From contig NZ_AFEJ02000001.1 of the NCBI RefSeq assembly GCF_000238775.2, positions 868,001 through 932,000 of the forward strand: 64,000 bases of DNA. The letters are read 5' to 3'. The DNA comes from Acaryochloris sp. CCMEE 5410. Its GTDB lineage: Bacteria; Cyanobacteriota; Cyanobacteriia; Thermosynechococcales; Thermosynechococcaceae. This document shows, piece by piece, positions 27,112-39,717 of this stretch. Numbering within the stretch: position 1 is the first letter of the stretch; each line of letters opens with the position of its first letter. The translations under genes were made by a program, and so were the position numbers. A model generated the notes under the pieces. That model saw only the letters and a list, made by a program, of their open reading frames with translations. It searched no databases and was not told the DNA's origin.

Positions 27112-27960
27112 CTATTGCTGGGCTTCCATATCTCCTAAATTAAACAGAAATGGAACGCTGTTGTTGCCTTTACTATCCATTACCAACACCTTGGGCATTT
27201 GAGCACCGCCTTCACGCCAGGCTGCGATCGCTTCTTTTTGCAGTACTAGCTTGCCCCCTTGGCTCTTCAAGGTTTCAGCCAAAAGGCGCTGGGCTTCAGC
27301 TTTACCTTTGGCGCGGTTGATTTCTGCTTGCGCTTGAGCTTCAGCTTTTTTGGCGTCAAAAATAGCTTGCTTAGCTTGCTGTTCGGCAATTTGCTTGGCT
27401 TCAACAGCTTCATTAAATTTAGGACTAAAGCTGAGGTTTTCGATGGCACTGCCTTCGAAGTTGATGCCAAAGCTAGAGAGACGTTTGGTCATCCCTTCGT
27501 CAAAAGCCTTGCGGAGCTGTTCACGCTTAGTAATCGCTTCTTCAGCCGTATATTGAGCACTGGATGCCTTAAATGCTTCTTGGGTGAGGGATCTGACCTT
27601 ACCTGTAACTTGAGACATGGTGCCGATACGGGTTCTAGTATCTGCTAGTGGACCTGGATCGATGGTGTAAAAAACCGTTAGCTCTGCGGTGAGGTCTTGT
27701 AAATCCTTGGTCGCGGCTGCTGCTGGGAACTGCTCTTCTTGGATATTGGCATCGTAAACATCAATCCCGCAGAGTAATGGGCACTTAAAGTTCAGACCAC
27801 TTTGGGCCATTGACCCTTTTTGTACTTTGCCTAAGAACTTATAAACACCAATCTGAGTGGGGCCAAGAGACTGAAAAGTATTCACACCAATCAGAGCAAT
27901 AAACAGTCCTAGTCCCGTTTTCCAGTTCAACCAACCAACATAGTTTTTAACGTTGTTCAT
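27112..27960 (-). CDS. SPFH/Band 7 (prohibitin-like) membrane protein
   Basis: A 282-residue protein with one N-terminal membrane helix (about residues 9-28), an SPFH domain (GPTQIGVYKFLGKV through the middle) and a long Ala/Glu/Lys coiled coil (about 180-245) typical of prohibitins, which assemble into large rings in the membrane. I choose the ATG at 27960 because GGAGA lies upstream at good distance; an upstream ATG at 28011 would add a non-hydrophobic 17-residue leader. It probably scaffolds membrane domains or regulates a protease such as FtsH (family knowledge). It lies downstream of the LemA/TPM genes. Confidence 0.9.
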   Translation of the reverse strand: MNNVKNYVGWLNWKTGLGLFIALIGVNTFQSLGPTQIGVYKFLGKVQKGSMAQSGLNFKCPLLCGIDVYDANIQEEQFPAAAATKDLQDLTAELTVFYTIDPGPLADTRTRIGTMSQVTGKVRSLTQEAFKASSAQYTAEEAITKREQLRKAFDEGMTKRLSSFGINFEGSAIENLSFSPKFNEAVEAKQIAEQQAKQAIFDAKKAEAQAQAEINRAKGKAEAQRLLAETLKSQGGKLVLQKEAIAAWREGGAQMPKVLVMDSKGNNSVPFLFNLGDMEAQQ

Positions 27961-28098
27961 ATCATTTGTCTCCAATAAACCTTCCAGGTTCAAAAAGTGG
28001 AATTCATCCAATTGACGCTTACGAAGTGGCGTCCTTATGGGTTAATAAGCTGAGAAAAGCACCCTGAATCATTTGGGCCTATGTGCCCTGGCCCAACG

Positions 28099-28851
28099 TT
28101 AATCTGCTTTTAGAAAAGGCTTTGATTCAAATCCTGAAAGCTCGGTAATGACTGCATTAGGGAATCCTTGCAGTTGCTGTTGGAAGCTTTGTACGGCCTG
28201 GTTATATCGCATTCGTTCTACGGCCAGCCGGTTTTCCGTGCCAGTGATTTCATACTTGAGGTTGATATAAAGCTGGCTAGATTTTAGAGCCGAATGGTTC
28301 AGGGCATAGGTTTGAAACTGATCAATGGCCTGATCTATTTTTGTAATTGCATCCTGCTGCTGTTCAAGACTGCGAGCCTCTAAGTAGGCTTGCTGCGCCT
28401 CGATGAGCGTTGTGACCAGGTTGCTTTCATGGGTGGTGTAAGCTTGAGTAACTTTGACCAACTGCGGAATTAAATCTGCCCGCCGCTGGCGTTGGTTCTC
28501 GACTTGTGCCCAAGCCGCTTCTACCTGAATTTGTCGCTTGGTAATCGCGTTATATGTGGCAATACTCCACCCTATGCTCCCTATTATAGCAATAGAGCTT
28601 ATAAGTAGCCACTTCCTCGTCCATCGTCCTGTATTCTGTCTTTTTGCTATTTTTTTGACGTTTTGAGCCTGAATTTCGGCAATGGCTTGAGGAATATACT
28701 CGACTGGAATACCTGCTTCTGCTGCGGCCATTTCCAGCTCTGCTCTAGAGTAATTGTCTAGGTCTGCAGAGGCGTATTGAGAGGCTAGTTCAAAAATTGC
28801 AGGAGCATCACTGGCTGGTATCGTTCGCTTTTTAGGATTCATTGTCTTCAC
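28099..28851 (-). CDS. LemA-family protein
   Basis: A 250-residue protein with a ~75-residue cytoplasmic N-terminus, a membrane helix (about 83-104), and a LemA domain of long helices. The LemA signature is clear: AAWAQVENQRQRRADLIPQL, TLIEAQQAY, LYINLKYEITGTENRLA, ERMRYNQAVQSFQQ and the closing FESKPFLKAD. LemA proteins often pair with TPM-domain proteins, as here: the TPM gene is 18 bp upstream on the same strand. The N-terminal extension before the helix is longer than in standard LemA proteins. Function is poorly known; envelope maintenance is usually proposed. Confidence 0.9.
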   Translation of the reverse strand: MKTMNPKKRTIPASDAPAIFELASQYASADLDNYSRAELEMAAAEAGIPVEYIPQAIAEIQAQNVKKIAKRQNTGRWTRKWLLISSIAIIGSIGWSIATYNAITKRQIQVEAAWAQVENQRQRRADLIPQLVKVTQAYTTHESNLVTTLIEAQQAYLEARSLEQQQDAITKIDQAIDQFQTYALNHSALKSSQLYINLKYEITGTENRLAVERMRYNQAVQSFQQQLQGFPNAVITELSGFESKPFLKAD

Positions 28852-28869: not shown

Positions 28870-30123
28870 TTACCAACTCCCCCCGGCTCCCCCACCGCCA
28901 CTGCTACCGCCGCCAAATCCTCCCCCGCCGCTACCGCCGCCGCCAAATCCCCCACCACCGTAGCCACCGTACGTGTCAGAGCTGCTCGCCCCACTGGCGC
29001 TACTAGAACGGGATGGGACAGGTTTTAGACGAGGCGTTTTTGTCTGATATTCCTTGTAGAGTCCACAACAGGCACACATTTGGGTAATAAATTGCTTCCC
29101 ACAGTCTTGTTCTGTTGCTTTTACCAAGGTTTCAGCAGAGTGGCGAATCGTATATTCTTTGCAGTCAGAACATTCTTGGAAAGAGATTGGATTCCAAATA
29201 TAAGCGCGAATATGAATAGAATCTGCGGCTTTGCCACAAGATTGAGCACATTGCCAACCGACAAACTTTACACTCCCCATTTTTTGTGCAGTTTGTTCAA
29301 TGGTGGTGAGGTGGGACGAGAGGATGTCAGAATTTATCTTTCTGAGACTTTTTCGGCAATACATACAGCGGGGAGGTAATAATCCCAAGTCGTCACTATA
29401 TTTTTCTCGGGAGACGCGAGATCGTTTCCCAGGTTTCAAGAGCGTTCCTTTTTTCCTTTTAATTAGAAAGGCCATAGTGCCTGCTAGCCCTCCACAGCCT
29501 AATACCCACAATAACCAAGACAAATCAGAGCTGTTTGGCGAAGGGGTGGAAACTAGTGGTTGAGTGTTGGTTGGATTTAAGGCAACAGGGCTAGATGGAT
29601 CAGCGCCAAGATGGCTGACTAAAAGTTTTGTTCCGCTTAAAGTCCCTTGATCAAAATTGCCTGTCTTGAATTTGGGCAGGATTTGCTGGTCAATCATTTG
29701 CCCCACTTTGGCATCGGGCAAAATGGCTTCAACCCCATAGCCCGTTTCAATTTCAACGCGGCGATCGCCTTTGGAAATTAAGAATAAAACACCGTTATTT
29801 TCTGCTTGCTTACCGATGCCCCAGTGGTTGAATAGGCTGGTCGCAAAGGCTTTAGGTGAAGCTGAGGGGGCCGTATTGGCAACGGTAACAACGGCGATTT
29901 CACTGCCATTCTTGGCCTCTAAATCAGTAATAAGCTGATTGAGTTGGGTTTCAGTTTGCGGGCTGAGAACATTGGCCATATCGGTCACCCAGCCTCCGTT
30001 TTGTTGACGAGGATTGGGAACTTGCTTGTAGGGCACGGCCCAGGCATGGAGCGGTAGCGCTGTAACTGTAATCCCCAACCCAATTCCGATACCTTTATAA
30101 AGACTGAAATAGGTCGTTTTCAT
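28870..30123 (-). CDS. TPM-domain (YgcG-like) protein with zinc-ribbon module and Gly-rich tail
   Basis: A 417-residue protein: signal peptide (residues 8-28), TPM domain (about 35-170, with VTDMANVLSP, SEIAVVTV and GDRRVEIETGYGVE), membrane helix (about 196-215), a cytoplasmic Cys-rich module (CMYC, CAQSCG, CSDCKE, CACCG) and a C-terminal Gly/Ser tail ending GGAGGSW. TPM domains are known from Psb32 and YgcG-type proteins, with roles in PSII repair or stress. The ATG at 30123 has AGGAG 8 nt upstream, so it is preferred over a TTG at 30147. It pairs with the adjacent lemA gene. Confidence 0.88.
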   Translation of the reverse strand: MKTTYFSLYKGIGIGLGITVTALPLHAWAVPYKQVPNPRQQNGGWVTDMANVLSPQTETQLNQLITDLEAKNGSEIAVVTVANTAPSASPKAFATSLFNHWGIGKQAENNGVLFLISKGDRRVEIETGYGVEAILPDAKVGQMIDQQILPKFKTGNFDQGTLSGTKLLVSHLGADPSSPVALNPTNTQPLVSTPSPNSSDLSWLLWVLGCGGLAGTMAFLIKRKKGTLLKPGKRSRVSREKYSDDLGLLPPRCMYCRKSLRKINSDILSSHLTTIEQTAQKMGSVKFVGWQCAQSCGKAADSIHIRAYIWNPISFQECSDCKEYTIRHSAETLVKATEQDCGKQFITQMCACCGLYKEYQTKTPRLKPVPSRSSSASGASSSDTYGGYGGGGFGGGGSGGGGFGGGSSGGGGAGGSW

Positions 30124-30182
30124 TCTGGACGCTCCTGAACTAGACAAAGAGTTAAAGATCCCCCAAAAAGTCTTAAAACGAT

Positions 30183-31443: not shown

Positions 31444-32229
31444 TTAAGACCGTTGTCGCTGAAAAGTAAGCAAATTATTTTGACTGGTTTGACCCCTATT
31501 CTGACGATAGGCTTGCTCGTATTGGGCCACCCTGTCTGTGGGGTGAAATATGGTTTCTACATGGTGGCGGCAGTCTTCCCGACTGAGTTGAAGGGCCGCT
31601 GGAATTTTCTTTACAAATTCATTAATCGTGGAGCAGATAAACCCAGATTTTCCATCCGCAATTACTTCGGGGACTAACCCACAGTTCATACCAATAACGG
31701 GGGTGCCGCAGGCCATCGATTCCAGCATCATTAGGCCAAAAGGCTCATCCCAAATAATGGGAAAAACAGTGACGGCTGCTTTGGCGAGGAGATCTGCTTT
31801 TTGGGCATGGTTGACTTCTCCCAGATACTGGATGCGTTGACCGTCAATGTGAGGTTTGATTTGATGTTCGAAAAAGTCTTGCTCGGAAGGGTCAATTTTG
31901 CCTGCCATTTTTAGAGGAAACCCGGCATGTTGGGCAATTGCGATCGCAAACTGTGGACCAGTCTCTGGAGCCATCCGTCCGACAAAGGCAATGTAAGGCG
32001 GAGTCTGGTATTCAGCTGCGAAGGGATATCGAGATAAGTCAATGGTGTTGTGAATCGTATCACTGTAATTGAGGTGGAGCATCGTTTGTTTCTGGGCCTC
32101 GCTAATGTTGATCACAGGAAGTTGAGGACAGGGTGCAAAAAGTGAGGGGTTACTGACCTGATGTCCTTGCCGGACTAGACCGTCTGTCAGCACGTGGATG
32201 ACACGTTCAAGACCGCCATGCCTGGTCAA
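31444..32229 (-). pseudogene. Truncated GT4-type glycosyltransferase remnant
   Basis: A 261-residue frame with clear glycosyltransferase family 4 signatures: GGLERVIHVLTDGLVRQGH near the start, then PYIAFVGRMAPETGPQ, AGKIDPSEQDFF, and the donor-binding block FPIIWDEPFGLMMLESMACG. Normal relatives are about 350-430 residues long. Here the segment between GHQVS and NISEAQKQ, which should span the rest of the N-terminal Rossmann domain, is almost wholly missing, and the start is a TTG just before GGLERV. It is probably a non-functional relic, but expression of a shortened protein cannot be excluded. Confidence 0.6.
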
Positions 32230-32342: not shown

Positions 32343-32608
32343 CTCACATAAGATATCTCTTTTATGTGAGATTTGTCAATGATTTTTCTCACATGAGGTT
32401 ACTCAAGTTGATCATGAATAGAGCCTTTATCTGTCCAAGTGTAGAGATAAATAGCTTGGTAAGCTTGAGTTTAGGAGCATAGACTTACTCCGTCTCCCTT
32501 AAAGACCTAAACATAAAGGAGATAAAGGGATGCTCACATAGTTGAGATCGACCTCATATAAAAGTTGTGAATTAGAGATAGAATGAGGAAGATCATTATT
32601 TATGTGAG
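32343..32608. promoter_or_regulatory. Cluster of CTCACAT/ATGTGAG motifs upstream of the STAND gene
   Basis: Five copies of a 7-bp motif lie in 266 bp of otherwise gene-free DNA: CTCACAT at 32343, 32388 and 32533, and its complement ATGTGAG at 32364 and 32602. The first pair forms a perfect 9-bp inverted repeat CTCACATAA (10-bp spacer) TTATGTGAG; the last copy, TTATGTGAG, ends 9 bp before the GTG start of the HTH/NB-ARC gene. The pattern looks like operator sites, possibly for that gene's own HTH (inference). The stretch 32230-32617 holds no gene I can support. Confidence 0.55.
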
Positions 32609-32617
32609 TTTATTGGA

Positions 32618-33898
32618 GTGATTCCTCCAGAGTTCTTGAGTGACTTAGCCACTCAACAGGGTGTATCCAAGTCTGAATTAGCAGCCCTTAAACTTGGACT
32701 AGCCGGGTATTCCACCGCTGATATTGGCGAACAGCTTGGAATTAGTGGGGATGCAGCCCGCAAACGCCTCAGTGAGGTCTATCAGAAATTTGGGATTGCT
32801 GGCCGAGGTCCCGTTAAACTCACAAAGCTGCAGCAACTTCTGGTGACGCGTTACCAAGAAGCCCTCGAAAAGGGAACGGCTGTAAAAGCTGCCGAGCCAG
32901 AGCAGGTGGATTGGGGCAATGCCCCCGATGTATCGGTGTTTTATGGTCGTACTGCAGAGTTAGAACAACTAGAGCGATGGATTATCCAAGATCAGTATCG
33001 CTTGCTGGCACTCTATGGGATTTCTGGGATTGGCAAAACAACCTTGTCCGTTAAATTAACGCAACGATTGCAGCCTCACTTTGAGAAAATTTTTTGGCGT
33101 TCCCTGTACTATGCCCCTTTACTACAAGATTTACTCACTGAACTAACGACGTTTCTCCACGGTTCACCATTAGACCCTGCTCTGGCGACGGTATCTGAGC
33201 AAATGGATTGGGTCCTAGATTATCTTCAGCACCATCGATGTCTCGTCGTCCTGAATGGTTTAGAATCCTTTAGCCGTAAGGGCGACTTGGCGGGGAGTTA
33301 CCAACCAAATTATGAAAACTACAGTCAATTGATTCATCTGGTGGGAACGGTGCCTCATCAAAGCTGCATTGTGACGACGAGTCAGGAGAAACTCAGTGAG
33401 GTCGCCTATCTCGAAGGCCAAACCTTGCCAGTGGGGTCCTTTAAGTTGCGCGGGTTGGAATTGGAGCAAGCGAAAGCGATTCTTCAGAACAAGGGACTGA
33501 CGGGAGAAGATAAATGGCAATATCTAGTGAATGGGTATCGGGGTAATCCGATGATGCTTAAGCTGGTCGCTGAAACCATCAAGGAAGTTTTTGGTGGCAA
33601 TGTCAGTGACTTCTTAGAGACCAGCTTATTCACCAGAGATATTCACAATTTTATCGAGCGAATTTTTGACCGGGTTTCAGATTTAGAACGACGAATTTTG
33701 TATATCCTCGCGGAGCAAAGTGATGGGTTAGGTTTTAAGCAACTGCAAGCCCAATTCTCCAGTATCAATGCCCAAGACCTTATGAGTGCCCTCTCGTCCC
33801 TTCGCCAGCGGTCCCTGATTGAACATGTGGATCAGGGGTTTATTCTGCCGCCGGTGATCAAAGAGGTCACCCAACAAATTATGGTGTCTGAAGCCTAA
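32618..33898 (+). CDS. STAND ATPase with N-terminal HTH (vMAP/LuxR-like) and NB-ARC domain
   Basis: A 426-residue protein starting at a GTG. Residues ~15-75 form a helix-turn-helix (LKLGLAGYSTADIGEQLGIS, DAARKRLSEVYQKFGI). An NB-ARC-type ATPase follows: P-loop GISGIGKTT (Lys140), and a Walker B position reading LVVLNGLE, where Asn213 replaces the usual Asp. A winged-helix region (about 345-420) closes the protein. Many cyanobacterial relatives continue into WD40 or TPR sensor repeats; this one stops after the winged helix. Only 7 bp separate it from a zinc-ribbon kinase gene, so the two probably work together in signalling or defence (inference). Confidence 0.8.
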   Translation: MIPPEFLSDLATQQGVSKSELAALKLGLAGYSTADIGEQLGISGDAARKRLSEVYQKFGIAGRGPVKLTKLQQLLVTRYQEALEKGTAVKAAEPEQVDWGNAPDVSVFYGRTAELEQLERWIIQDQYRLLALYGISGIGKTTLSVKLTQRLQPHFEKIFWRSLYYAPLLQDLLTELTTFLHGSPLDPALATVSEQMDWVLDYLQHHRCLVVLNGLESFSRKGDLAGSYQPNYENYSQLIHLVGTVPHQSCIVTTSQEKLSEVAYLEGQTLPVGSFKLRGLELEQAKAILQNKGLTGEDKWQYLVNGYRGNPMMLKLVAETIKEVFGGNVSDFLETSLFTRDIHNFIERIFDRVSDLERRILYILAEQSDGLGFKQLQAQFSSINAQDLMSALSSLRQRSLIEHVDQGFILPPVIKEVTQQIMVSEA

Positions 33899-33905
33899 TC
33901 AATCG

Positions 33906-35051
33906 ATGGTGTATTGTCCCAATCCTAAGTGTAAACAGCGACAAAATCCTGCAAAAGCAGAGGTTTGTCAAAGTTGCGAAACACCATTAATTCTTAACCA
34001 GAACTATCGTCTGATTCGGCCCTTAGTGAACCTTGAGCGATCGGGCAATACTGAAGTGTTTGAAATTGAAGATCTGCGCTGTACTCATCAATCAGAGCCA
34101 ACGCCGAAAGTGCTGAAGCTCCTCAAGTACAATGGCGGCGATTTAGAACGGTTGTTTATACAAGAGGCAATCTATTTACAAAGCCTGGATCATCCTGCTA
34201 TTCCAAAAATTGATCCTCAAGATCGTGCGGACAATGGCTATTTTTCAGTTGTGGAGCCAGCCACGCGTCGAGAAATCCATTATTTCGTGATGGAAAAGGT
34301 TGAAGGGAAAAATCTACGGGACTGGCTACAGGAGCAACCGCCAATTGATAGTGCCACTCTTTTGAAGTGGCTTCGGGAATTGCTGACTATTTTGGACTAT
34401 CTGCATACTCAAAATATTTGGCATCGAGATATTAAACCCTCCAATATCATGTTGCGACCGGACGGACAGCTGGTTTTGATTGACTTTGGCGCGGTTAAAC
34501 AAGTTCGACCTCACCCGGAAGAAGCTGGTGACATTCCCCCTCGACCCGAAATAACGGTTACCGATACCTGTGTGTTTGCGGCGGGATATACACCTCCAGA
34601 ACAGATGGATGGGAGAACGGTACAGCAGTCCGATTTTTTCGCTTTGGGGCGTAGTTGGGTGCATTTGATCACCCAAATTCCACCCTACAATCTGCGGGTT
34701 GATGATGGTGGACAATTAGTTTGGCGAGAGAAGGCCCCTGATGTTTCGGTGGTGCTTGCCGATTGGATTGATCAATTAATGTCTCCGTTGGTTCGAGACC
34801 GTCCTCAATCCGCGGCTGAGGTCTTGAAAAATATTCAACCAGAAAACCTTATTTCTCCTCCCCAGACCCAAAATTTATCTGAAGGAGAGACTTCGCCGGG
34901 GTCTTTCCCTTGGGGATCGTTGCTGAACCTGATTCTGTTCTCCATCCTGCTCATTAGTGGCCTGTTGTGGTGGCAAGCTCATGAAAATAGCCAACCGGCT
35001 GAGGGGACAAATCAGCAAGTGCAGCGCCATCTTCCATCCTTGGGATTATGA
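33906..35051 (+). CDS. Zinc-ribbon serine/threonine protein kinase, membrane anchored
   Basis: A 381-residue protein with an N-terminal Cys4 zinc ribbon (Cys4, Cys9, Cys21, Cys24), a kinase domain (about 33-310) and one membrane helix (about 339-357) with a short outer tail. Catalytic residues are intact: KVLKLLKYN (beta-3 Lys), alpha-C Glu in FIQEAIYL, HRDIKPSN (173-180) and IDFG (Asp193), in contrast to the degenerate kinase at 3981-5546. It probably phosphorylates a protein in the same pathway as the STAND ATPase encoded 7 bp upstream. Its last 6 bases overlap the end of the convergent binding-protein gene. Confidence 0.9.
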   Translation: MVYCPNPKCKQRQNPAKAEVCQSCETPLILNQNYRLIRPLVNLERSGNTEVFEIEDLRCTHQSEPTPKVLKLLKYNGGDLERLFIQEAIYLQSLDHPAIPKIDPQDRADNGYFSVVEPATRREIHYFVMEKVEGKNLRDWLQEQPPIDSATLLKWLRELLTILDYLHTQNIWHRDIKPSNIMLRPDGQLVLIDFGAVKQVRPHPEEAGDIPPRPEITVTDTCVFAAGYTPPEQMDGRTVQQSDFFALGRSWVHLITQIPPYNLRVDDGGQLVWREKAPDVSVVLADWIDQLMSPLVRDRPQSAAEVLKNIQPENLISPPQTQNLSEGETSPGSFPWGSLLNLILFSILLISGLLWWQAHENSQPAEGTNQQVQRHLPSLGL

Positions 35052-36278
35052 AGGGGGATTCAATAGTTGGTCGGTTTCTGCAGTGGCTTTTTTCATGATT
35101 TCCTCGACGGCCTGATCAGAGGTGTCGGGATTAAGAGCTTGGCTGAGAGCAGCTTGCAAGATGTCTGAGGCTTGATCATATTCTGGAATGCGAGGTCGAT
35201 AAATGACCTTGGTGATCGCTTGCTGGATCTCAGGTGATTCTTGTTTTAATACCTCTTTATGACTGGGGATAAATTGAGTGGCTTGGGTAAATTGGCGCTG
35301 GGCTTTCTCACTAGTGAAAAACCGAATGGCTCGCCAAGCTTGATCAGAATGCTGTGTTTTTTTGGCAATGCCTAGGCCCCAACTGCCATTGCAAGGACCG
35401 CCTGAATGGCCCTGGGTCTGTAGTTGCATCGGCACTGATTTAACCAACTTGTCTTCAGCCAGTAAGAGCTGCGCTCTGGGCCAGTGCCGCAAAAACATGC
35501 TTTTGCCCCTCTTAAATTGAGCGAGGGATTCTGCTTCGCTATAGGTCAGGACACTGGTGGGGGACACCTTACTGGTTAAGGTGTTGCGTAGAAACTGTAC
35601 GGCCTGAATAGCCTCGGGTTGATCGAGTCCGACCTGGCGGGTTTGATCATCAACCCAGTAGCCTCCATGTCCTGCCAGTATTTCGACAAAGGTGGCAATT
35701 TTCCCTTCGTACTGATCGCCTTGCCAGAGAAAGCCCCATTCCACTAGCTGCTTTTGTTTGAGGGTTTGGGAGATTTTAATTAAGTCTGTGAAGGTCTGGG
35801 GCGGTTGCGGGTAGCCAGCCTGTGCAAGTAAATCAGAGCGGTAGTAGAGCATGCCCATATCGGACCGTAGGGGAATGCGATAGGACTTGCCGAAGTATTC
35901 TCCATCTTTGACGGCTTGGGATGTGAATTGCGATCGCATCTCCGCATCAAACCGCCCGGAAAGATCCTGCAGACAGCCTCGAACCGCGAATTCAGGTACC
36001 CAAATCACATCGATATATACCAAGTCAGGAGACCCTTGGGGTAAGCAGGAGCCTTCCTTAAGCTGCTTGGATAAAAAGCCGCCTAAATTTTTTGTGGTGA
36101 TCAGGCTAATTTTGGTTTTGGGATGTTTGGCTTCAAATTTTTGGATTAAGGGTTTCCACGCTTGCGCTTCATCCTCTGGCACCAGCAAGGTCAGGACCAC
36201 TGGGGGCCAGGTGAAATAGAGCAGCCCGAGTGCCAGCACTTGTACTGCTGCAATTCCCAACCAAAAACGCTTTGCCAT
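35046..36278 (-). CDS. ABC transporter extracellular solute-binding protein, family 1 (sugar type)
   Basis: A 410-residue protein with an N-terminal signal anchor (residues 5-24) and the family 1 solute-binding fold: VPEDEAQAWKPLIQKFEAKH, SPDLVYIDVIWVPEFA, GKSYRIPLRSDMGMLYYRSD, GSWGLGIAKK and the C-terminal helical part. Relatives bind oligosaccharides or glycerol-type solutes in the periplasm. No permease or ATPase gene is adjacent, so partners must lie elsewhere. The ligand is undetermined. It overlaps the kinase gene tail to tail by 6 bp. Confidence 0.88.
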   Translation of the reverse strand: MAKRFWLGIAAVQVLALGLLYFTWPPVVLTLLVPEDEAQAWKPLIQKFEAKHPKTKISLITTKNLGGFLSKQLKEGSCLPQGSPDLVYIDVIWVPEFAVRGCLQDLSGRFDAEMRSQFTSQAVKDGEYFGKSYRIPLRSDMGMLYYRSDLLAQAGYPQPPQTFTDLIKISQTLKQKQLVEWGFLWQGDQYEGKIATFVEILAGHGGYWVDDQTRQVGLDQPEAIQAVQFLRNTLTSKVSPTSVLTYSEAESLAQFKRGKSMFLRHWPRAQLLLAEDKLVKSVPMQLQTQGHSGGPCNGSWGLGIAKKTQHSDQAWRAIRFFTSEKAQRQFTQATQFIPSHKEVLKQESPEIQQAITKVIYRPRIPEYDQASDILQAALSQALNPDTSDQAVEEIMKKATAETDQLLNPPS

Positions 36279-38577: not shown

Positions 38578-39717
38578 CCAAATCCGACTCATTAACCCCC
38601 GAAATATCTTATCTGTCAAGCTGGCCACCAATGGTAGTGAGTGAGAGCTTGAATGTCTGATTGCATTGTCATTAAAGTTCGACAGCGCTGCTCGAGCACA
38701 TCTTCCAACTCATCCAGGGTCTCAAAGCATCGATTGGCCAGTGGTTCATCCGCTAGCCGCCACAACCGTTCAGCGGGCTGTAGCTCTGGAGAATAGGGGG
38801 GTAAAACCTTCAGATGAATGCCTTTAGGTACCACCAGATTTTACAGGTATGCCATCCGGCTCCATCGAGAACGAGAAGAATCTGTTTGTGCTTTCCCGCT
38901 CCAACTTGCTGAGCAAAGCTTTGTAGGGCTTGATTAAACCATTCTCCATTGACCCGAGGCAGAATGAACCATTCGGTATTGCCAGTTGCGGGATGAACGA
39001 ATCCATACAGATAGGTCCATTCATAGCGATGGTCCACCTCAGCAATTGGACGCTGACCCACAGGCGCCCAAATCTTTCGAATAATGGGTTTAAGGCCTAA
39101 ACGATGTTCATCCAAGGACCAAACTTCGACCTGAGCATTAGGGTAGCGTCGCTCCAATTCTGCTTTGTACTTAGGCAGTTTTTTAAAAGCGGCTTGGGCC
39201 TCTGGTTCACCTTTACGGTGGTGAGGACGTGGGCATTGCAGGGACTGCTCCAATCGCTTGAGATAGTCCCAACCGCGTTGGGGCCAAACCTTATCGACTC
39301 CTGTCATCTGAGCGATGACCTGGGCTACTTTGGGGCCGTTCCATAGACCACCGTCGGCGGGTGGGGTTTGTAGACGAGTCAACAATTGTGCACATTGGTC
39401 TTGAGTCAGAAGACTGCGAGATTGATGAGGTCGCTTATCTTTGCGTCGGTTGCGTAACCCATGGGCGCCATTGTGGTTATACTCCCTGACGATTTCTCGA
39501 GCGTAATCGTAGTTGAGACCGACCACTTGGGCTGCTTGAGTTAGCGTTGTTTGCTCACTGACGAGCCACAGCAGATGCCAGCGGCGCGATTCTACTGGGT
39601 CTTGGCTGGCTCGATAATGAGACTTCAGCTCGTCAGGCGAAAAATGGGGTTCGAGATATAGTTTTCTTGGCATTCTCTAATTATGCATTATATCGGAGTT
39701 ATATAAATCGGATTTGG
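38578..39717 (-). mobile_element. IS630-family insertion sequence with TA flanks
   Basis: A 1140-bp element. Its ends are inverted copies of CCAAATCCGA, and each end is flanked by the dinucleotide TA (38576-38577 and 39718-39719), the target used and duplicated by IS630/Tc1 elements. Including the TA the perfect repeat is 13 bp (ATACCAAATCCGA, 38575-38587 and the complement of 39708-39720). It contains one transposase split over two frames. Confidence 0.88.
38616..39673 (-). CDS. IS630-family transposase, split by a -1 frameshift
   Basis: Frame one (39673-38810) has the HTH region and the first two catalytic Asp residues (VWSLDEHRLGLKP and LVLDGAGWHT). Frame two continues in the -1 phase (to 38616) with GIHLKVLPPYSPELQPAERLW, where the catalytic Glu lies. 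The frames join at TGTAAAAT, where a -1 slip on the A-run yields a continuous DDE transposase of normal length. It is either a programmed shift or loss of one A from the gene. Confidence 0.82.

What the first reader, a model, noticed from the sequence alone, without database searches (positions are those of the whole stretch)
32618..35051. Two-gene unit of an HTH/NB-ARC STAND ATPase and an active-looking zinc-ribbon kinase
A STAND-type ATPase and a membrane kinase are encoded 7 bp apart. The ATPase has an HTH and a P-loop, but its Walker B position is Asn and it lacks the usual sensor repeats. The kinase has an intact Lys, HRD and DFG plus an N-terminal Cys4 zinc ribbon. The pair could be a signalling or anti-phage module in which the kinase is the effector or sensor. 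The pairing and spacing are seen; the shared function is inference.
Basis: partly seen in the sequence, partly recalled or inferred. Interest (0 to 1): 0.7.

Follow-up and report, generated by a model that had tools for sequence, protein, structure and literature searches.

The report
Cyanobacterial kinase–ATPase gene-switch pair
Two neighbouring genes in this cyanobacterium look like one signalling unit, a DNA-binding ATPase switch plus a membrane protein kinase, and related pairs with exchangeable sensor-like domains, often beside genes for secreted proteins, recur across cyanobacteria.

Summary
In detail: a 426-aa HTH/NB-ARC STAND ATPase (Walker B Asn213) lies 7 nt upstream of a 381-aa Cys4 Ser/Thr kinase with intact catalytic residues. 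The pairing is not accidental. In 80 named cyanobacterial loci chosen only by ATPase similarity, 16 of 33 short STANDs (ORF under 800 aa) have a kinase directly downstream; 0 of 47 long ones (three scanned, all with WD40) do. ATPase and kinase distances correlate over 34 pairs (r=0.64; 0 of 5000 permutations). In other pairs the kinase carries a sensor-like domain: TPR, WD40, CHASE2 or periplasmic-binding. Many pairs adjoin a secreted-looking Fn3/DUF928 protein and a TPR-CHAT gene, several with two-partner-secretion genes; the window pair does not. The STAND looks like a transcription factor: its LuxR-type HTH family has an upstream half-site, CTCACATA, clustered before the window gene, shared with the divergent glycosyltransferase promoter, and found in 7 of 18 further upstream groups of same-HTH relatives (0.19 in shuffles). 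Best reading: an AfsK/AfsR-like pair in which a membrane kinase modulates an autoregulating STAND transcription factor. DNA binding is strongly inferred, phosphorylation only inferred. I found no support for anti-phage defence. New variant of a known kind.

The parts
32618..33898 (+). HTH (LuxR/GerE-type, about aa 1-80) + NB-ARC STAND ATPase, no sensor repeats, Walker B Asn213
33906..35051 (+). Cys4-prefix Ser/Thr protein kinase, catalytic residues intact, one helix (aa 337-360) read as membrane anchor, bare tail
32343..32370 (.). inverted repeat CTCACATAA-N10-TTATGTGAG; once in each of 3 genus genomes, only here
32388..32396 (+). half-site CTCACATGA (1 mismatch)
32533..32541 (+). half-site CTCACATAG (1 mismatch), -85 to the ATPase start
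32553..32561 (+). half-site CTCATATAA (1 mismatch; exact in the three orthologs at -64 to -68), -65 to the ATPase start
32600..32608 (-). half-site (TTATGTGAG on +), -18 to the ATPase start; exact in the window and the three genus orthologs
32350..32379 (-). promoter-like TTGACA/TATCTT of the divergent glycosyltransferase, interleaved with half-sites (2 promoter-like sites found in the region, 4.3 in shuffles)
31444..32229 (-). divergent glycosyltransferase, N-terminal third missing in the window (aligns to 130-366 of a 367-aa ortholog)
   Evidence: family from the G004 ortholog
28870..30147 (-). TPM-domain protein (same strand behind the glycosyltransferase)
28099..28851 (-). LemA family protein
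27112..28011 (-). Band_7/SPFH protein
35046..36278 (-). convergent solute-binding protein (SBP_bac_1); a homolog (37%) is convergent to a pair in Petrachloros too

Best explanation
The pair is a compact signal-transduction unit. The first gene makes a STAND ATPase whose N-terminal LuxR-type HTH binds CTCACATA half-sites in its own promoter and in the divergent glycosyltransferase-TPM-LemA-SPFH promoter (strongly inferred, not shown). The second makes a membrane-anchored Ser/Thr kinase that acts on the STAND, most likely by phosphorylating it and changing its nucleotide state or oligomerisation (inferred). In related pairs the kinase carries a sensor-like domain (TPR, WD40, CHASE2 or periplasmic-binding); WD40 is also the domain that one-gene STANDs carry on themselves, so I read the sensor as having moved to the partner. 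The window kinase has lost or never had it and keeps only an anchor. The Walker B Asn suggests slow ATP hydrolysis, a long-lived ATP state set by the kinase rather than by turnover (inference). It works like AfsK/AfsR, with simpler parts and adjacent genes.
For: Adjacency: 16 of 33 short versus 0 of 47 long STANDs among 80 loci chosen by ATPase alone (16/34 v 0/46, Fisher 8e-8). Co-inheritance: Mantel r=0.64 over 34 pairs, 0 of 5000 permutations; r=0.61 with near-copies removed; r=0.56 and 0.66 within subsets (20 and 3 of 5000). The window kinase lies in a 26-row side of the tree with 24 paired. Sensor-like domains on paired kinases. DNA binding: GerE above cut-off in relatives; profile matches solved GerE HTH 1FSE (2.6e-5; HTH part) and AfsR (1.4e-6; ATPase part); one paired STAND carries a Cro/C1 HTH instead (36.4 bits). 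Operator: 6 half-sites in 270 bp (random placement reached 4 once in 5000); inverted repeats only at this locus in 7 genus genomes; in one genome the sites stay with both the glycosyltransferase and the pair although genes lie between them; CTCACATA in 5/21 same-HTH upstream groups v 0/70 others and in 7/18 further groups v 0.19 in shuffles.
Against: No phosphorylation data; co-inheritance follows from linkage and does not prove contact. 17 of 33 short STANDs have no adjacent kinase, including Moorena L119, the nearest relative outside the genus, and the half-site is also found before one-gene STANDs, so DNA binding does not need the kinase. 11 of 35 paired kinases in the tree lie on the side with 19 unpaired ones. 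AfsK phosphorylation of AfsR was reported to have little activating effect (passages of PMC10936776). No general repeat enrichment upstream of the other pairs, and no convincing shared word between STAND and TPS/CHAT promoters (its positive control also failed). 12 of the 28 same-HTH rows shown, among them L119 and L114, have no half-site within one mismatch in 400 bp.
Confidence: 0.6

Rival explanations
1. The STAND is an autoregulated DNA-binding switch by itself; the kinase is only co-transcribed and phosphorylates other proteins.
For: Short STANDs without a kinase neighbour exist (17 of 33), and same-HTH STANDs without one also have half-sites. Solo kinases of the same family exist: 20 loci that I picked because one search showed no STAND beside them had indeed none.
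Against: Recurrent same-order pairing over many genera, co-inheritance, and no kinase beside any of 47 long STANDs.
Confidence: 0.2
2. Reverse direction: the STAND senses an internal signal and the kinase is its effector, possibly in cell-suicide or anti-phage defence.
For: STAND fold close to NLR/Apaf-1; CHAT (caspase-like, recalled) genes beside many paralogous pairs; PD-T4-6 model scores.
Against: The STAND has no sensor repeats while kinases carry sensor-like domains; several CHAT ORFs begin with signal-peptide-like stretches by eye and lie with secretion genes; operator evidence for DNA output; one weak PADLOC hit among 10 neighbours; no phage match for the ATPase.
Confidence: 0.1
3. CTCACATA is the site of another, unlinked regulator, and the STAND does not bind it.
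For: No binding was tested; the HTH could mediate protein contacts.
Against: The site tracks the HTH type across genera (5/21 v 0/70; 7/18); the inverted repeats occur only at this locus in the genus genomes; none of the other block proteins given to Pfam shows an HTH (two small ORFs were not scanned).
Confidence: 0.1

Closest known systems
AfsK/AfsR of Streptomyces
   Same: Ser/Thr kinase plus STAND transcription factor encoded near each other; N-terminal DNA-binding domain followed by NOD; AfsR is a profile match to this family on the ATPase part.
   Different: AfsR has a SARP domain and a C-terminal TPR and is separated from afsK by two genes; here a LuxR-type HTH, no repeats, 7 nt spacing, and the sensor-like domain is on the kinase in relatives.
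MalT and other LuxR-type STAND activators
   Same: STAND fold (8BOB_C: Z 21.4, rmsd 3.6 over 305 residues) and a LuxR-type HTH.
   Different: MalT has its HTH at the C-terminus and an inducer-binding sensor (recalled); here the HTH is N-terminal and there is no sensor.
Cyanobacterial HTH-NB-ARC-WD40 proteins
   Same: Related NB-ARC and, in part, same HTH and upstream half-site.
   Different: Long ORFs (WD40 in the three scanned), no kinase neighbour in 47 loci.
Cyanobacterial cbSTKII kinases with WD40/TPR/CHASE2 (PMC2176072, passages seen)
   Same: Kinase with additional domains.
   Different: NB-ARC has 0 occurrences in the held main text of that survey; adjacency to a STAND is not described in the passages seen.

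Membership tests
NB-ARC STAND ATPase | NB-ARC homology and P-loop | tested here: met
NB-ARC STAND ATPase | Walker B acidic residue | tested here: not met
   Asn213 in window and genus orthologs; ATPase activity may be reduced
NB-ARC STAND ATPase | C-terminal sensor repeats | tested here: not met
   protein ends at aa 426; no repeat family found
AfsR-type regulator | N-terminal SARP domain | tested here: not met
   LuxR/GerE-type HTH
AfsR-type regulator | Ser/Thr kinase gene close by | tested here: met
   7 nt downstream
AfsR-type regulator | phosphorylated by the partner kinase | not testable with these tools
   needs biochemistry
MalT-type LuxR STAND | HTH at the C-terminus | tested here: not met
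   HTH within aa 1-80
4-Cys prefix Ser/Thr kinase | NCBIfam NF045510 above cut-off and intact catalytic residues | tested here: met
   32.8 bits v 24; invariant residues
PD-T4-6 anti-phage kinase | phage protection | not testable with these tools
   model score 298.9 bits without a cut-off
PD-T4-6 anti-phage kinase | defence-gene neighbourhood | tested here: not met
   10 neighbours scanned, one weak hit only
STAND-kinase-TPS/CHAT locus | CHAT, TPS, ShlB or secreted Fn3 gene nearby | tested here: not met
   none in the 64-kb window; CHAT at 11 of 21 extended pair regions

The most novel reading that the evidence does not exclude
Cyanobacteria have a general, unrecognised class of paired signalling systems, a sensor Ser/Thr kinase plus a STAND transcription factor, built like two-component systems with exchangeable kinase sensor domains and co-inherited as units; in one large branch it controls secreted CHAT/two-partner-secretion loci. 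The operator of one HTH family (CTCACATA) is readable from sequence.
Probability: 0.4. Interest if true: 0.85.

Novelty: new variant of a known kind. Interest (0 to 1): 0.7.

Why it matters
Targets of bacterial Ser/Thr kinases and inputs of bacterial STAND proteins are mostly unknown (general knowledge). Here a genetically linked pair gives a kinase with its likely substrate and the substrate with its likely operator, so the whole path can be tested with EMSA, a kinase assay and a reporter. WD40 is found on the STAND in one-gene forms, on a separate gene in one locus, and on the partner kinase in some pairs, a natural test of how STAND switches can be rewired. The frequent link to secreted-looking CHAT and two-partner-secretion genes gives a first handle on how those cyanobacterial loci may be controlled.

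Tried and rejected
Anti-phage module: ATPase against phage records (no match), PADLOC on neighbours (one weak hit), PADLOC on the pair; not supported. Window pair as part of a CHAT/TPS locus: no such gene in the 64 kb. General repeated motifs upstream of all STANDs: none specific to pairs (mean excess 0.38 for 35 pairs, 0.35 for 38 short, 0.38 for 47 long). Shared words between STAND and TPS/CHAT promoters: one of nine comparisons (L190, 14 nt; its shuffles reached 13) exceeded its shuffles; the test has little power, since its positive control (G001) also failed. Promoter and terminator scan: counts not above shuffles. Direct-repeat half-site pattern: one hit, at the pair in G002, and two control hits.

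Literature: searches (open-access PMC only) listed no paper that I recognised as describing a STAND-kinase pair of this kind or its link to CHAT/TPS loci; I saw listings, and passages of three papers. Absence there is weak evidence.

Caveats on counts: the 20 regions were chosen for adjacency and those for their CHAT/third-gene type; neither gives a rate. The regions were chosen as apparently unpaired. The CHAT and Fn3 profiles were each built from 8 pair loci, so 8 of the 15 CHAT and 8 of the 16 Fn3 pair hits are training rows; flank lengths also differ between loci. Rows dropped: L101, L104, L177 (copies of L045, L056, L048); L053 from the ATPase tree and L080 from the kinase tree. One of the 80 loci (probably L174) changes class. 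'Short' means ORF under 800 aa; some of the longer short ones may be cut WD40 forms. 11 of the 21 TPR or WD40 tails are called by eye (10 not scanned; L151 scanned, with no TPR family at E 1e-9), as are the bare and 'other' tails. I had seen CTCACATA hits, and shortened the word to 8 letters, before counting; one search is the test with the word fixed beforehand. Its shuffles keep single-base composition only and use one member per group, and its 18 groups, which share no 18-mer, may still be related species.

Full report
What is there. Two ORFs lie 7 nt apart on the plus strand: a 426-aa HTH/NB-ARC STAND ATPase (32618-33898, GTG start) and a 381-aa Cys4 Ser/Thr kinase (33906-35051). The genome is very probably Acaryochloris: one same-genus genome (G004) has the pair on a 12,086-base contig, and the named record L101, Acaryochloris sp. 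IP29b_bin.176, has the same length and an ATPase of the same 89% identity. The ATPase has a normal P-loop but Asn213 at the Walker B position, shared by the window, three genus orthologs and an unpaired Moorena relative (L119); three other paired STANDs have Glu and 112 of 121 aligned rows Asp. The AlphaFold model (pLDDT 88.7) matches NRC2, Apaf-1, the TPR-sensor STAND 6MFV and MalT (Z 21-22) and has no repeat part. The kinase keeps its catalytic residues; its model has a helix 337-360 that I read as a membrane anchor.

Is the pairing real? I took 80 named loci by ATPase similarity alone. Of 33 with an ATPase ORF under 800 aa, 16 have a kinase ORF directly downstream on the same strand (0-439 nt); of 47 with a longer ORF none has (by one search's choice of ORF 16/34 against 0/46, Fisher 8e-8; near-copies inflate this somewhat). 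Three long ones were scanned and all carry WD40. With regions from other genomes there are 35 distinct pairs besides the window's, gap 25 nt or less in 23. Short STANDs without a kinase exist (17 of 33), and so do solo kinases (20 picked as such, confirmed). In a tree of 118 ATPases a 66-row side (support 94) with all 47 long forms and 19 short ones holds no pair. In a tree of 56 kinases the window kinase sits in a 26-row side with 24 paired; the other 11 paired lie with 19 unpaired. Distances of the two proteins correlate over 34 pairs (r=0.64, 0 of 5000 permutations), also within two subsets (20 and 3 of 5000). This shows co-inheritance as a unit, not contact.

Where is the sensor? Among 36 pairs (window included) I class the kinase tail as TPR in 17, CHASE2 in 6, WD40 in 4, periplasmic-binding (Peripla_BP_6) in 1, bare in 6 (window, three orthologs, L048, L166), other in 1 and cut in 1. 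Pfam confirms 7 TPR, 6 CHASE2, 3 WD40 and the periplasmic-binding one; the rest is by eye. One locus (L160) has a short STAND followed by a separate WD40 protein and no kinase. So a sensor-like part lies on the STAND, on its own gene, or on the kinase.

Neighbours of related pairs. In natively fetched regions, within 5 kb, a secreted-looking Fn3-like protein is found at 16 of 35 pairs (after the kinase; about 1 kb away in L151) and a CHAT gene, convergent in all but one, at 15 of 35; against 0 and 1 of 37 unpaired short STANDs, 1 and 0 of 47 long, 0 and 0 of 21 unpaired kinases (profiles trained on 8 of the pair loci). In 10 extended regions, BLAST clusters add two-partner-secretion exoproteins (10 loci), ShlB-type transporters (5) and P450s (3); Pfam confirms CHAT in 2, the TPS domain in 3, ShlB in 1 and P450 in 1 of the proteins scanned. 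DUF928 takes the third place in CHASE2-type loci L050 and L175. CHAT is present at 11 of 21 extended pair regions and absent at 10, among them two genus orthologs of the window pair. The window has no CHAT, TPS, ShlB or Fn3-like gene. Its convergent neighbour is a solute-binding protein, whose homolog (37%) is also convergent to a WD40-type pair in Petrachloros.

Operator. Six copies (up to 1 mismatch) of CTCACATAA lie in 32343-32608, of 13 in the whole window, a number not above chance for 64 kb (14.4 in shuffles); it is the clustering that is unusual: random placement of 13 hits gave 4 in 270 bp once in 5000, and none of 300 other 9-mers reached 6. The copies at about -65 and at -18 recur in all four genus genomes that have the pair, even where the rest of the region has diverged (the -65 copy has one mismatch in the window). 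The inverted repeat CTCACATAA-N10-TTATGTGAG occurs once in each of three of seven genus genomes and only here; a long-spaced form once in each of three and only at the pair start. In G001 other genes separate the glycosyltransferase from the pair, and the exact sites in 19.5 kb are two at the glycosyltransferase promoter and three before the pair. The promoter-like TTGACA/TATCTT of the glycosyltransferase is interleaved with half-sites in window, G002 and G004. The glycosyltransferase, LemA and solute-binding genes have close matches (77% identity or more) in the same four genomes; the other three genomes have at best 47% matches, and no LemA match in two of them (some of these genomes are incomplete).

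Does the STAND bind it? Among relatives outside the window's clade, 5 of 21 upstream groups with the same HTH contain CTCACATA, against 0 of 70 groups with other N-termini; it is the most enriched of 6,191 8-mers (I had seen some of these hits). With the word fixed, 7 of 18 further groups have it, against a mean of 0.19 and at most 2 groups in 200 shuffles; in 7 of the 8 loci it lies 49-74 nt before the start. So the site tracks the HTH type, including long one-gene STANDs. But 12 of 28 same-HTH rows show no site within one mismatch. The profile matches solved GerE DNA-binding domains, and one paired STAND has a Cro/C1 HTH instead. DNA binding and autoregulation are therefore strongly inferred.

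Mechanism. The nearest worked-out analogue is AfsK/AfsR (passages). I propose: kinase at the membrane, through its tail or a partner, changes the STAND by phosphorylation; the STAND, with slow or no hydrolysis because of Asn213, binds half-site arrays and controls its own operon and the divergent glycosyltransferase-TPM-LemA-SPFH genes, an envelope-type set. Shown: anatomy, pairing, sites. Inferred: binding, phosphorylation, direction, slow hydrolysis. Against: AfsR is reported to be little activated by phosphorylation, and 17 of 33 short STANDs lack an adjacent kinase.

Novelty. Parts are known kinds; their combination as an adjacent kinase-STAND pair with varying kinase tails, an operator and a secretion-locus branch did not appear in searches. 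I rate it a new variant of a known kind.

Noticed in passing
L189-L198 (extended regions): Recurrent locus: STAND, kinase, secreted-looking Fn3/DUF928 protein, convergent TPR-CHAT, ShlB transporter, two-partner-secretion exoprotein, sometimes P450; three copies on separate smaller contigs (C3, C4, C5) of the window's own genome.
   Followed up: partly
31444-32229 (-): The divergent glycosyltransferase lacks its N-terminal third in the window and has a different internal loss in G002; 367- and 365-residue matches in G004 and G001.
   Followed up: partly
L160:3962-7485: Short HTH-STAND followed by a separate 672-aa WD40 protein on the same strand: a split form of the usual STAND-WD40 fusion.
   Followed up: no
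L190:12259-16538: A CHAT gene appears split by transposase-like ORFs (by eye).
   Followed up: no
L165, L167, L175: Walker B Glu in place of Asp in three paired STANDs.
   Followed up: no
35046-36278 (-) and L203:6776-8200: SBP_bac_1 protein convergent to the pair in Acaryochloris and Petrachloros; could be a separate sensor for a kinase without one.
   Followed up: partly
32618-33898 (relatives on plasmids): 72 of 72,556 plasmid records hold an ATPase relative, all under 60% identity, 7 of them Acaryochloris plasmids; neighbours there were not looked at.
   Followed up: no
38810-39673 (-): Transposase-like ORF 3.8 kb downstream of the kinase (by eye; only PADLOC was run on it).
   Followed up: no
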